Source: an uncultured Solobacterium sp. (GTDB lineage Bacteria; Bacillota_I; Bacilli_A; Erysipelotrichales; Erysipelotrichaceae). Taken from it: a stretch of 45,028 nt of DNA. Shown in pieces: positions 24,741-28,470 of this stretch (its first letter is position 1; every line of letters starts with the position of its first letter). The stretch is taken from positions 1 through 45,028 of the forward strand of contig CAMKTV010000008.1 in the NCBI GenBank assembly GCA_946415785.1. The letters run 5' to 3'. The position numbers were made by a program, and so were the translations under genes. The notes below the pieces were generated by a model. It did not search any database and was not told where the DNA came from. It was given only the letters and a program-made list of their open reading frames with translations.

Positions 24741-24830
24741 ACCTCCCATAAGCTAAAGACTTATGGGCTTCTTAAGAAGTTTGATATTTAAGCTTTGTTC
24801 ACTTAACTGTTACCTACAGTTAAGCTATCC
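24737..24830 (-). ncRNA. Predicted omega RNA (TnpB guide RNA) at the tnpB 3' end
   Basis: On the minus strand, starting at the tnpB stop: hairpin CTTAACTG/CAGTTAAG (24824-24802), the palindrome CTTCTTAAGAAG (24779-24768), and hairpin CCCATAAG-loop-CTTATGGG (24767-24745), ending GGGAGGTTCAC. GTTCACT (24797-24803) can also pair with AGTGAAC (24736-24742) to enclose two of these. Omega RNAs overlap the tnpB 3' end and stop at the right end; the guide is then the host DNA beyond it, here the end of the serine hydrolase gene. Confidence 0.45.
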
Positions 24831-26067
24831 TTATTCTTAACGGGCTGTCCACTTGCCCTCTACTGTATAGGACATTTAGGTCCGCTACATTACTTTTCTT
24901 CAAAATATTTAATGCTCCATTAATATCCGCATTGATATATTGATTTTTAGAGGTTTTATAGAGACCTCTTTTTATTCTAGCACCAGAGAAGATATATTCC
25001 TTTGGATTATCATCATTATATACGGGAATATCATCTTCATCGAAGAATGATGCCTTAGAAGTGTAAGATTCTTCTTGTTTATTAAGATGTATTCCATAAT
25101 ATTCAGATAAGTATGTCAGTTTCTTTTTCAACCTTCCAAAAGGAATATTAACGAATGATTGATTGTTTCTTCTTCCTAAATTGCTTTCCTTTTGTAGTGT
25201 AGGATTATAGCCTATTACAATATTACCTATATTATTATTTATACAATAATTAATAATATGTCTTGCACATTTAGAAATATAATCATTAATCTGATTATTT
25301 CTTTTTCTTTCTAGTTTAGATTGTTGTTTAGTTTTAAATGAAATGTGCTGTTTATCCTTTATTGATTGTAATCTAGAGTAATTCTTATTAAACCATTGGT
25401 TAATAGATTTAAGTCTTCTACCATCAAGGATGAATGATTCACCATTGCTAGTTACACATGCCACAAGATTATTTATTCCTACATCAATGGACAATGCTTT
25501 GTTAAAGTCTAACTCTTCTTTGATATCTTTTTCTTTTTCATAAGTATATTGAATCTCAAAGAACCTTCCATTTGATTTAGGTATTATTCTAATCTCTTTG
25601 ATTTTCTTATCTAATAGTATTGGTGGAATAGTAATCTCAATCTTCTTGTGTGTCTTTCTAAAGGAATTACTCATAGGTAAAAGAAGTTTGTTGCCATTTA
25701 TTCTTATAAAACCAATTACTAATGTATAATATCCCTCCTTTCTTAGATATTGAGGTAAGCATATATCTTTATAAGAGTATCTACCTTTTTTAGCTAATTT
25801 AAGTAAACTAAGAAACGATTTAAAAGAACCATCTACTTCTTTTAATATCTGTTGAGCCATATTAGAATTAAGCATCTTATAGTTTTCAGATGTTTTTAAT
25901 AGATGATAGTTGCTTTCATAATTAAGATACTTATTTTCATTAAAGAAATATTGTCTAGAGTTATAAAGACCTTCATTATAAAGATTCTTGGCATAACGAC
26001 ATAATTCCAATAAAGTATCATAATTAGATTTACTTAATTTTGGTTGTTGTCTAATAGTTAGATACAT
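24820..26067 (-). CDS. tnpB: TnpB RNA-guided nuclease, GYN-type active site
   Basis: A 415-residue TnpB (OrfB_IS605) protein, ancestor-type of Cas12. It has the N-terminal helical/wedge part with YAKNLYNEGLYNSRQYFF, RuvC-I ALSIDVGINNL (D195), a basic bridge helix region, and RuvC-III YINADINGALNIL (D381). The usual RuvC-II IVIEDL reads IVIGYNPTLQKESNLG, with Gly at the standard Glu position and E294 a few residues on, as in the TnpB branch with GYN-W-K-Q patterns. The zinc-finger CxxC pairs are missing (SYTSKASFF in place of TSKxCSxC). Length is full. tnpA being broken, it is either dormant or working as a guided nuclease. Confidence 0.85.
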   Translation of the reverse strand: MYLTIRQQPKLSKSNYDTLLELCRYAKNLYNEGLYNSRQYFFNENKYLNYESNYHLLKTSENYKMLNSNMAQQILKEVDGSFKSFLSLLKLAKKGRYSYKDICLPQYLRKEGYYTLVIGFIRINGNKLLLPMSNSFRKTHKKIEITIPPILLDKKIKEIRIIPKSNGRFFEIQYTYEKEKDIKEELDFNKALSIDVGINNLVACVTSNGESFILDGRRLKSINQWFNKNYSRLQSIKDKQHISFKTKQQSKLERKRNNQINDYISKCARHIINYCINNNIGNIVIGYNPTLQKESNLGRRNNQSFVNIPFGRLKKKLTYLSEYYGIHLNKQEESYTSKASFFDEDDIPVYNDDNPKEYIFSGARIKRGLYKTSKNQYINADINGALNILKKSNVADLNVLYSRGQVDSPLRIRIA

Positions 26068-26111: not shown

Positions 26112-26161
26112 GCTAAAAGAGTGCTTAATTCTATTCGCATAATTTATTATGGTTTCTTTAT

Positions 26162-26305
26162 ATGAAACATTATTATGATGCTTATAATCATCAAATAGAA
26201 GTAAATTAAAAATTGATATCATGGAATCCGATAAGGACCATATTCATTTGTTATTCTTGTATGATAATTATGTACCTTGTCTGTACATAATCTCATATTC
26301 CTTTC
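26162..26305 (+). pseudogene. tnpA: Remnant of IS200-type HUH transposase tnpA
   Basis: In the frame from 26188 the segment KIDIMESDKDHIHLLFLYD matches the IS200 TnpA core, in which HIH is the metal-binding HUH motif. The N-terminus is frameshifted (MKHYYDAYNHQIEVN in another frame from 26162, then stop) and the catalytic-tyrosine half is absent, cut off where the IS110 element starts. Not functional. Confidence 0.6.
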
Positions 26306-26313
26306 TAACCTTT

Positions 26314-26505
26314 GATAGGATAAAGTAGAAGCCGTTGTTTACTCTAACGTTGTGTCTGTGGTTTATCTACTTTTAGGAGGATGAGGCTATGGGTTCTTAT
26401 GAATCTGTTTATGGTTGGATAGGACTAAGTTCCTTTATGTCACGCAAGGTTATAGATAAGATCGCCATAGTAGTTAGACAAGGTTTCTAGAAAGGCGGTC
26501 TTTTA
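26314..26505 (+). ncRNA. Predicted bridge RNA of the IS110 element
   Basis: The noncoding 5' part folds into a long first stem, AAAGTAGAAGCC (26322-26333) with GGTT-TA-TCTACTTT (26360-26373), carrying a 26-base loop that contains TCTAAC, equal to the left flank 26304-26309. A second stem, CTATGG (26387-26392) with CCATAG (26465-26470), encloses GATAGGA (26418-26424), equal to the left end 26314-26320, and AAGGTTA (26446-26452), complementary to TAACCTT at the right end. Two loops matching flank and ends are what IS110 bridge RNAs show. Confidence 0.45.
26458..26504 (+). promoter_or_regulatory. Hairpin covering the IS110 transposase ribosome site
   Basis: AAGATCGCC (26458-26466) pairs with GGCGGTCTT (26494-26502, one G-U pair), followed by TTTT and then ATG at 26508. 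It hides the AAAGG site and resembles a terminator; it shares bases with the second bridge-RNA stem, so the two folds exclude each other. Confidence 0.5.
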
Positions 26506-26507
26506 TT

Positions 26508-27677
26508 ATGACCTATTGTGTTGGCGTTGATATAGCCAAATTTGAACATGTAGTCTCTATCCTAGATTCACTTACTGGTGAACTGATAGTTGACTCACTC
26601 CATTTCGATAATAGTCTCAAAGGTTTTAATATACTATTATCGAATCTATCTAAATTAAATAAAGATGATGTGATAGTCGGCTTTGAATCTACAGCTCATT
26701 ACCACCAAGCTTTATTTAACTATCTAACTGAAAATCAATATAAGTGTTATTTAATTAATCCTTTAATGATTTCCAGATTTAGATCTATTTCATTACGAGA
26801 TAGTAAGAACGATAATATCGATTCTAGGGCTATCTCTAAATTCTTATTACTTGAATATAAACATTTGATTGATGAAGAATTCTCTATTAATGAATTAAAG
26901 GAATTGTGTCTTCAAAGAAGTTTCCTTATGGAATCGCAATCGAAAATCAAGATTAAACTTGTTTCTTACTTAGATAGAGTCTTTCCTGAATTGTGTAAGA
27001 CAATACCTCAAGGAACTCTTTATTCTAAAGGCTTATTAGCTATTCTTAAGGAATGTCCTAGTGCTAAACTAATAAGCGAAACTAGGATTGACCATTTAAT
27101 CAATATAGCTAAGAAGGCTTCTTTAGGTAGATATAAAGAATCCTTAGTTATTAAGATTAAAGAGGCAGCTAAATCATCTATCGGTTTTCATTCGGATGCC
27201 TTATCGTTAAAGATTAGACAATCAATAGAATTATTAGAATCATATAAAAGGCAGATAGATGAGATTGAAGAATCAATCATTAATAACCAAATAGTAATTA
27301 ATTCTCCACTCCACCAAATTAAGGGAATTAATTCTATCGAGATAGGTTACATCATGTCTGCCATTATTAGTATAAAACGATTTGAATCTTATAAGAAACT
27401 AGTAGCTTATGCAGGTCTAGATCCTAAAGTAAGACAATCAGGTACCTGGATGGCTTCTAAAACTAGAATGTCTAAACGTGGTAACGCCTTACTTCGCTAT
27501 GCCTTAATTTGGGCAGCTAATAATATTCGCAAGCATCCTTCAAAGATGAAAGACTATTATGAACTTAAATGTTCAGAGAATAAGTCTCATTACAATGCCT
27601 TAGGACATTGTGCTTCCAAACTATGTCGTTACATATTCTGGATTTTAAATAATCCTGACAAACAATTCATCAATTAA
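26508..27677 (+). CDS. IS110-family transposase (recombinase)
   Basis: A 389-residue IS110 recombinase. The N-terminal RuvC-like DEDD domain shows D8 in CVGVDIAKFEH, E60 in VIVGFESTAHYH, and D102/D105 in SLRDSKNDNIDSRAI. A coiled-coil-like middle follows (about residues 190-260), then the Tnp_20 C-terminal domain with IKGINSIEIGYIMSAII, AYAGLDPKVRQSGTW (catalytic serine S311) and KTRMSKRGNALLRYALIWAA. All key residues are present and the length is normal, so it is probably active. IS110 recombinases are guided by an RNA encoded in the element's own noncoding end, here probably the 5' region. Confidence 0.92.
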   Translation: MTYCVGVDIAKFEHVVSILDSLTGELIVDSLHFDNSLKGFNILLSNLSKLNKDDVIVGFESTAHYHQALFNYLTENQYKCYLINPLMISRFRSISLRDSKNDNIDSRAISKFLLLEYKHLIDEEFSINELKELCLQRSFLMESQSKIKIKLVSYLDRVFPELCKTIPQGTLYSKGLLAILKECPSAKLISETRIDHLINIAKKASLGRYKESLVIKIKEAAKSSIGFHSDALSLKIRQSIELLESYKRQIDEIEESIINNQIVINSPLHQIKGINSIEIGYIMSAIISIKRFESYKKLVAYAGLDPKVRQSGTWMASKTRMSKRGNALLRYALIWAANNIRKHPSKMKDYYELKCSENKSHYNALGHCASKLCRYIFWILNNPDKQFIN

Positions 27678-27779
27678 TTCAAGTAATAAATTTTCAAAGA
27701 ACAGTTTTATTAATACATATAATCTATAAGACTATAGCTATTAATCATAAATAGAAGTTTTAATAATGGATTAACCTTT

Positions 27780-27798
27780 AGTCAAAATTAATTTGACT
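27780..27798. repeat. Inverted repeat at the IS110 right flank
   Basis: AGTCAAA (27780-27786) and TTTGACT (27792-27798) pair across ATTAA, directly outside the inferred right end of the IS110 element. It could be a feature of the target site or a remnant operator. Confidence 0.35.
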
Positions 27799-28470
27799 TT
27801 TCATAGTAGGTCTTGTATTTTGGTGACAGGATCTGTACTTGTTTATAACAAGTTCTTTCATAAGGAAGAAGAAGTTGTTGAAAATATTCCAGTAGAAGAT
27901 GATAGCAAGGACATTGTAGAAATAGATGAAGAAGGCATAACTATTGTTGATAATAGTGAAGAAAATGTTACTGATACTAAAGAAGATACTAACAAGGGTA
28001 GAACAGTAAACAACAACACTACTTCATCTAACACTACTTCAAATGACAATACATCATCTAATACTAACACGAATAACAACAATTCATCTAGCACTGATTC
28101 AAACAACAACACTCTTGCAGCACACACTCATGAAACAGTTGTAATTAAGGCTGTTGCTCCAACATGTGAAAGTGATGGCTTAACTGAAGGTAGTAAATGT
28201 AAAACATGTGGTGCTATCTTACAAGGACAAACAGTTATACCTAAACTAGGACATAAAGCAATTACTCTTGAAGCAGTTGCTCCAACATGTGAAAGTGATG
28301 GCTTAACTGAAGGTAGTAAATGTAAAACATGTGGTGCTATCTTACAAGGACAAACTGTGATTCCAAAACTAAATCATAGTTATGGAACCGATGGCAAATG
28401 TATTAGATGTGGGGCTCCTAGTCCTGATGAATCTAAAGAAATTAAGCTACCAAAAATTAAGATTAAATAA
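27793..28470 (+). pseudogene. Surface protein with two 41-residue Cys-Cys-Gly repeats, 5' end lost
   Basis: The frame can only start at TTG 27793, with no ribosome site, 13 bases from the IS110 end, so the real 5' end is probably missing. A hydrophobic stretch ILVTGSVLVYNKFF (membrane anchor) is preceded in another frame by IVGLVF, suggesting a frameshift in the same helix. Then come an acidic stretch, an Asn/Ser/Thr-rich linker (about residues 70-108) and two repeats containing APTCESDGLTEGSKCKTCGA, ending PKLGH. Such C...CxxCG...H repeats occur in extracellular proteins of gut Bacillota. No sorting signal is seen. A terminator follows. Confidence 0.55.
28153..28355 (+). repeat. 80-bp perfect direct repeats within the surface protein gene
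   Basis: Bases 28153-28232 and 28276-28355 are identical, 123 bases (41 codons) apart. Perfect identity at third positions points to a recent duplication or ongoing gene conversion, so repeat number may vary among strains. Confidence 0.85.

What the first reader, a model, noticed from the sequence alone, without database searches (positions are those of the whole stretch)
26306..26505. IS110 5' noncoding region looks like a bridge RNA whose guide segments match the element ends
Seen: TAACCTTT at both sides sets the likely ends; in the noncoding 5' part one stem-loop carries TCTAAC (identical to the left flank), and a second encloses GATAGGA (identical to the left end) and AAGGTTA (complement of the right end), so the two donor matches have opposite polarity. 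Known: IS110 recombinases use an RNA with target and donor loops that pair with opposite strands. Inference: this is the bridge RNA. The right-target match was not found, so the core could be a little off.
Basis: partly seen in the sequence, partly recalled or inferred. Interest (0 to 1): 0.7.

Follow-up and report, generated by a model that had tools for sequence, protein, structure and literature searches.

The report
IS110 bridge RNA aimed at Shine-Dalgarno sites
The region does encode the guide RNA of an IS110 transposon, but its real ends and guide segments differ from those first proposed, and in its relatives the guides spell a ribosome-binding site plus start codon, so these elements land precisely between genes in operons, even in front of essential genes.

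Summary
The inference "bridge RNA" is right; the ends and guides first proposed are wrong. Twenty homologous elements place the element at window 26256-27813 (core CT), not at the TAACCTTT repeats: such an 8-mer repeat is expected by chance in 76% of simulations and only this copy has the right-hand one. An empty site in a congeneric genome confirms the ends for a homologue. The RNA (about 26268-26504) has a 5' stem, a target loop and a donor loop with strong covariation. Correct guides are LTG 26346-26357, RTG 26371-26379, LDG 26411-26418 and RDG 26436-26438 plus 26444-26448. Guide and flank covary across relatives: RTG P<=1e-4 in each of two sets, LTG P about 0.01 and 2e-4. In 19 of 19 homologues the target is a Shine-Dalgarno/start-codon junction on the other strand (atpD, frr, cysS, hisA and others; background 2.7%). 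IS900 is known to have this habit; its explanation by bridge-RNA guides I found in no paper. The window copy itself does not sit at such a site and its guides do not match its flanks, which I cannot explain.

The parts
26256..27813 (+). Whole IS110-group element; core CT at 26256-26257 (left) and 27812-27813 (right), 1556 bp from core to core
   Evidence: Conserved LE CTTGTATGAT and RE TTGAC(N)..CATAG..GGT|CT in homologues; five identical copies in G133 diverge exactly at these borders; empty site in G581
26268..26504 (+). Bridge RNA gene: 5' stem-loop, target-binding loop, donor-binding loop, terminator-like helix; 5' end inferred at about 26272 from the junction -10 box, 3' end inferred
   Evidence: Alignment of 15 homologues, RNAalifold, pair counts
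26268..26290 (+). 5' stem-loop (TTATGTA / TACATAA), loop CCTTGTC 26275-26281 also complementary to GACAAGG 26477-26483
   Evidence: helices 1 and 2: changes on both sides in 4 of 7 and 1 of 7 pairs
26346..26357 (+). Left target guide (LTG): hypervariable stretch directly 5' of the hairpin
   Evidence: LTG-LT matching above permutation, P about 0.01 in the main set and 2e-4 in the distant set
26358..26370 (+). Hairpin GUGG-UUUAU-CUAC between LTG and RTG
   Evidence: 100% of cells paired, 2 pairs with changes on both sides (helix 4)
26371..26379 (+). Right target guide (RTG) TTTTAGGAG; in relatives usually AAGGAG, a Shine-Dalgarno sequence
   Evidence: RTG-RT permutation P<=1e-4 in two sets
26387..26470 (+). 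Donor-binding loop, outer stem CTATGG 26387-26392 / CCATAG 26465-26470
   Evidence: helix 5: 4 of 6 pairs with changes on both sides, 98.9% paired
26411..26418 (+). Left donor guide (LDG) ATGGTTGG; matches own RE ATAGTAGG at 6 of 8 positions, one of the two differences a wobble
   Evidence: LDG and RE change together in homologues: GCTGG/GCTGG, GTTGG/GTTGG, GTTGG/GTAGG
26436..26448 (+). Right donor guide (RDG), discontiguous: TAT 26436-26438 and GCAAG 26444-26448, against LE CTTGTATG
   Evidence: Sequence; same layout and same donor CTTGTAT as IS621
26460..26504 (+). Terminator-like helix GATCGCC 26460-26466 / GGCGGTC 26494-26500 followed by TTTT; probably ends the bridge RNA upstream of the transposase gene
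   Evidence: 99% of cells paired, one pair with changes on both sides
26508..27677 (+). IS110 recombinase, 389 aa; D8, E60, D102, D105 and S311 correspond to the catalytic residues of IS621
   Evidence: Pfam PF01548 and PF02371; alignment to 8wt6; positions
27793..27813 (+). Right end with the -35 box TTGACT; with the left end in a circle gives TTGACT-17-TATGAT
   Evidence: Junction promoter in 16 of 16 elements, 17-18 nt spacing

Best explanation
This is an IS110-group insertion sequence with a bridge RNA in its left end. On excision the right and left ends join at the core CT and form a sigma-70-type promoter that transcribes the bridge RNA (inferred). The donor loop pairs with the element's own junction (LDG with RE, RDG with LE) and the target loop pairs with genomic DNA (LTG with the bottom strand left of the core, RTG with the top strand right of it), as in IS621. 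In this clade the target loop spells a translation start region read on the opposite strand: RTG = AAGGAG (Shine-Dalgarno) and LTG = spacer plus, weakly, the start codon. One guide therefore fits many gene junctions, and elements land between Shine-Dalgarno and start codon, antisense to the operon. After insertion the left end brings its own ACAAG(G) 5-9 nt before the host start codon, which may keep the downstream gene translated (inferred). Shown here: ends, RNA fold, guide-flank covariation, target class. Inferred: transcription, RNA-protein binding, catalysis, effect on translation.
For: Domains and catalytic residues. Ends from homologues and five identical copies, and an empty site aligning gaplessly over 122 nt at 91%. 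Fold: 92.9% of cells paired against 87.0 sd 0.5 in shuffles, 17 pairs with changes on both sides against 7.4. RTG-RT permutation P<=1e-4 for 10 RNA types and 5e-5 in 11 distant elements; LTG-LT P 0.009 (best of 13 registers), 0.014 and 2e-4. Examples: L058 RTG TTTAGAAAG with flank CTTTCTAAA; L060 AACGGAG with CTCCGTT; L014 TTTTTGGAG with CTCCAAAA. A phage-borne relative matches over 10 nt. 19 of 19 left flanks have the ATG of a long opposite-strand ORF 5-9 nt from the core against a 2.7% background, 17 of them with a Pfam domain. Junction promoter in 16 of 16.
Against: The window copy is the exception: RTG predicts CTCCTAAAA but the right flank is CTTGTATTTT (score 2.5 of 7), LTG does not match its left flank, and the left ATG opens only a 13-codon frame. 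No expression or binding data. LTG evidence is weak in the close set, and core and RTG borders in the distant set were placed by eye. Five of the 19 flanks come from one genome with identical elements.
Confidence: 0.9

Rival explanations
1. One reading: ends at the TAACCTTT repeats, with guides TCTAAC, GATAGGA and AAGGTTA.
For: The strings are present.
Against: Conservation continues 50 nt upstream to CTTGTATGAT and 40 nt downstream to GGTCT in homologues; an 8-mer repeat is expected by chance; the right repeat occurs only in this copy.
Confidence: 0.01
2. Start-codon-proximal insertion reflects selection (only harmless intergenic insertions survive) rather than guide-directed targeting.
For: Insertions between genes are less damaging, and survivors are all that genomes show (inference; the pattern itself is).
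Against: Selection alone would not place every insertion inside the Shine-Dalgarno sequence at 5-9 nt from the ATG (19 of 19), nor make the RTG covary with the right flank beyond the common CTCC. Insertions precede atpD, frr and cysS, where damage should be costly.
Confidence: 0.06
3. About the window copy only, compatible with the best explanation: it is a stranded or rearranged element with a real bridge RNA, whose present flanks are not its insertion target.
For: Left flank looks like IS605 tnpA debris beside tnpB; the right flank is a top-strand gene cut in its N-terminal anchor; neither guide matches; the first 7 nt of right core plus flank equal the element's own left end.
Against: No genome with an empty or intact site was found, so off-target insertion or guide drift remain possible.
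Confidence: 0.6

Closest known systems
IS621 bridge RNA system (PMC11208160, PMC11208158)
   Same: IS110 recombinase with DEDD plus serine residues, upstream bridge RNA, 5' stem-loop, target loop then donor loop, LTG-hairpin-RTG and LDG-hairpin-RDG order, CT core, donor right half CTTGTAT, discontiguous RDG ending GCAAG, junction promoter
   Different: Targets are Shine-Dalgarno/start junctions, whereas IS621 targets REP sequences (from memory); only a distant protein match (E 5e-9); longer RNA (about 230 against 177 nt)
IS900 of Mycobacterium avium subsp. paratuberculosis (Doran 1997, cited in PMC8141618)
   Same: Target motif CATGNNNNNNTCTCCTT is the same start codon-spacer-Shine-Dalgarno arrangement in the same orientation
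   Different: IS900 carries a full-length opposite-strand hed frame; here the opposite-strand frame behind the host Shine-Dalgarno is only 4-37 codons. I found no paper assigning IS900 targeting to a bridge RNA. The IS900 sequence itself was not compared here
IS1111 / seekRNA elements (PMC11187229)
   Same: RNA-guided DEDD transposases
   Different: IS1111 has its noncoding region downstream of the gene and subterminal inverted repeats; here it is upstream

Membership tests
IS110 family recombinase | DEDD_Tnp_IS110 and Transposase_20 domains with D-E-D-D and serine | tested here: met
   PF01548 6.5e-31, PF02371 9.6e-20; D8, E60, D102, D105, S311 against IS621
IS110 (not IS1111) type | Long noncoding region upstream of the gene | tested here: met
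   252 nt from core to start codon
[quoted passage not shown]
Bridge RNA | Target guides covary with insertion-site flanks (across homologues) | tested here: met
Bridge RNA | Target guides match the flanks of the window copy itself | tested here: not met
   RTG-RT score 2.5 of 7; LTG no match; flanks may be rearranged
Bridge RNA | Donor guides match RE-LE junction | tested here: met
   LDG ATAGCTGG = RE ATAGCTGG, with linked changes in other elements; RDG GCAAG against CTTGT; by inspection, no permutation test
Bridge RNA | RNA expressed from the circle junction and bound by the recombinase | not testable with these tools
   Only the promoter-like junction was seen
IS900-like Shine-Dalgarno targeting | CAT-spacer-CT-CCTT at the insertion site | tested here: met
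   19 of 19 homologues with a left flank have the start codon and most right flanks begin CTCC; not met by the window copy
IS900-like Shine-Dalgarno targeting | Long host-dependent opposite-strand frame (hed) | tested here: not met
   4-37 codons only

The most novel reading that the evidence does not exclude
A widespread clade of RNA-guided transposons has evolved a degenerate 'universal' guide that reads the translation start signal itself. The element's own junction is also an SD-like/ATG module (ACAAG..ATG in the close family), so recombination swaps initiation regions and leaves both sides translatable, which lets the element live inside operons of essential genes.
Probability: 0.25. Interest if true: 0.72.

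Novelty: new variant of a known kind. Interest (0 to 1): 0.52.

Why it matters
It gives a molecular reason, RNA guides that spell Shine-Dalgarno plus start codon, for a targeting habit known since 1997 for IS900. It shows how a programmable recombinase can trade site specificity for a genome-wide class of safe sites. It makes clear predictions in culturable Lactobacillales and Bacillales that carry related elements.

Tried and rejected
Single-sequence folding was uninformative, and Rfam found nothing credible. Scans of genome contigs and viral contigs by peptide pattern found no relatives. A search for an uninterrupted left flank of the window copy in the genus gave only short matches; the right-flank protein had one weak homologue. 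A functional antisense 'hed' gene was considered: the RE start codon is present in 17 of 17 close elements, but the frames are 4-37 codons and the CAT is missing in several distant relatives, so it is not claimed. A terminator scan with short loops missed the long-loop helix. In the distant set, a start-codon match near the left end alone is weak evidence, because CAT-N-CT with an open frame occurs often in 330 nt; only the guide-flank permutation tests count there.

Full report
Observation. The quoted strings are present, but TAACCTTT at 26306 and 27772 does not mark the ends: a shared 8-mer between the two noncoding parts is expected in 75.5% of simulated pairs, and only the window copy has the right-hand one. 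The gene at 26508-27677 is an IS110 recombinase whose D8, E60, D102, D105 and S311 align with the IS621 residues. The genome holds one copy.

True ends. Searches of related genomes gave about 20 elements at 41-77% protein identity. All with a left end start with CTTGTATGAT, 50 nt upstream of the proposed end, and nearly all with a right end finish CATAG(C/T)(T/A)GG(T)|CT. The window element is thus 26256-27813 with core CT. Genome G133 holds five identical copies that differ only outside these borders. Joining the flanks of the copy between atpG and atpD at a single core CT gives a sequence that aligns without gaps over 122 nt at 91% to a congeneric genome without the element.

RNA. Aligning 15 left ends and folding them gives a target loop and a donor loop; a 5' stem-loop was added by hand. 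On this fold 92.9% of cells pair against 87.0 (sd 0.5) in shuffles, and 17 pairs have changes on both sides against 7.4. The donor-loop stem CTATGG/CCATAG changes in concert to CTGTGG/CCACAG and CTGCGG/CCGCAG. A terminator-like helix follows. Layout and order match IS621, including the donor half CTTGTAT and a split RDG ending GCAAG. Joined ends form TTGA(C/T)N-17/18-TATGAT in 16 of 16 elements.

Guides. The RTG, directly 3' of the GUGG..CUAC hairpin, matches the right flank of its own element better than those of others: 54 matches against 38.8 for 10 RNA types, P 1e-4 or less, and 52 against 33.3 in 11 independent distant elements, P 5e-5, the resolution limit. The LTG, directly 5' of that hairpin, matches the left flank: P 0.009 at the best of 13 registers, 0.014 without anchoring in the close set, and 2e-4 in the distant set. 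The LDG changes together with the right end.

Target. In 19 of 19 homologues with a left flank the bottom-strand ATG of a long ORF lies 5-9 nt outside the core, against 2.7% of CT dinucleotides in the window. Pfam recognises 17 of the 19, including ATP synthase beta, cysteinyl-tRNA synthetase, ribosome recycling factor, a histidine-biosynthesis protein (HisA) and semialdehyde dehydrogenase. Most right flanks begin CTCCTT, so the site is start codon-spacer-Shine-Dalgarno on the opposite strand. More distant relatives on plasmids of Lactococcus, Leuconostoc and Alicyclobacillus, and in Faecalibacterium phage Roos, lie in front of annotated opposite-strand genes in the same way; in phage Roos the RTG matches 10 of 10 bases. 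The same motif, CATGNNNNNNTCTCCTT, is published for IS900. I found no paper that links it to a bridge RNA in the library searched; subscription papers and preprints are not held there.

Exception. The window copy does not obey the rule: its right flank CTTGTATTTT does not fit its RTG (predicted CTCCTAAAA), its left flank does not fit its LTG, and the left ATG opens only 13 codons. The left flank looks like the remains of an IS605 tnpA and the right flank is a truncated gene, so a rearrangement after insertion is plausible but unproven.

Mechanism. RNA-guided recombination as in IS621 is inferred from anatomy and covariation. That the left end (ACAAG) replaces the lost Shine-Dalgarno sequence, so that genes such as atpD, frr and cysS stay translated, is a hypothesis suggested by the sequences; it was not tested.

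Noticed in passing
24820-26067 (-) and 26160-26255 (+): IS605-type TnpB (OrfB_IS605, Cas12f1-like TNB) next to what reads like a remnant of an IS200-type tnpA (..ESDKDHIHLLF) that ends at the IS110 left end.
   Followed up: partly
window 27812-27818: The right core plus the first 5 nt of the right flank, CTTGTAT, equal the element's own left end; possibly the scar of a tandem copy or of insertion into a left-end-like site.
   Followed up: partly
L045, L050, L068, L069, L070: In this distant subgroup the CTCC lies on the left (LTG) side, so the host gene keeps its Shine-Dalgarno sequence; in the close family the Shine-Dalgarno is split and mostly left with the element.
   Followed up: partly
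L061 (G501:C12): Copy in front of cysS has lost most of its donor loop (left end about 88 nt shorter than in its sister copy L075) while the transposase frame is intact.
   Followed up: no
RE of 17 close elements, e.g. just inside the right core of the window element (complement): An antisense ATG lies 6-7 nt inside the right core, at Shine-Dalgarno spacing from the host AAGGAG, opening frames of 4-37 codons; reminiscent of IS900 hed.
   Followed up: partly
L075 and L064: Elements whose right end lacks one T before the core (GG|CT) have C instead of A or G just after the RTG, consistent with the handshake pairing described for IS621.
   Followed up: partly
window 26314-26325: GATAGGATAAAG corresponds to a conserved TATAAT-like stretch about 25 nt upstream of the target loop; possibly a second, internal promoter.
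   Followed up: no
L097, Faecalibacterium phage Roos orf25: An IS110 element annotated only as hypothetical protein sits in a phage genome, with its right target guide matching the flank over 10 nt and its left guide over the proximal 7 nt.
   Followed up: partly
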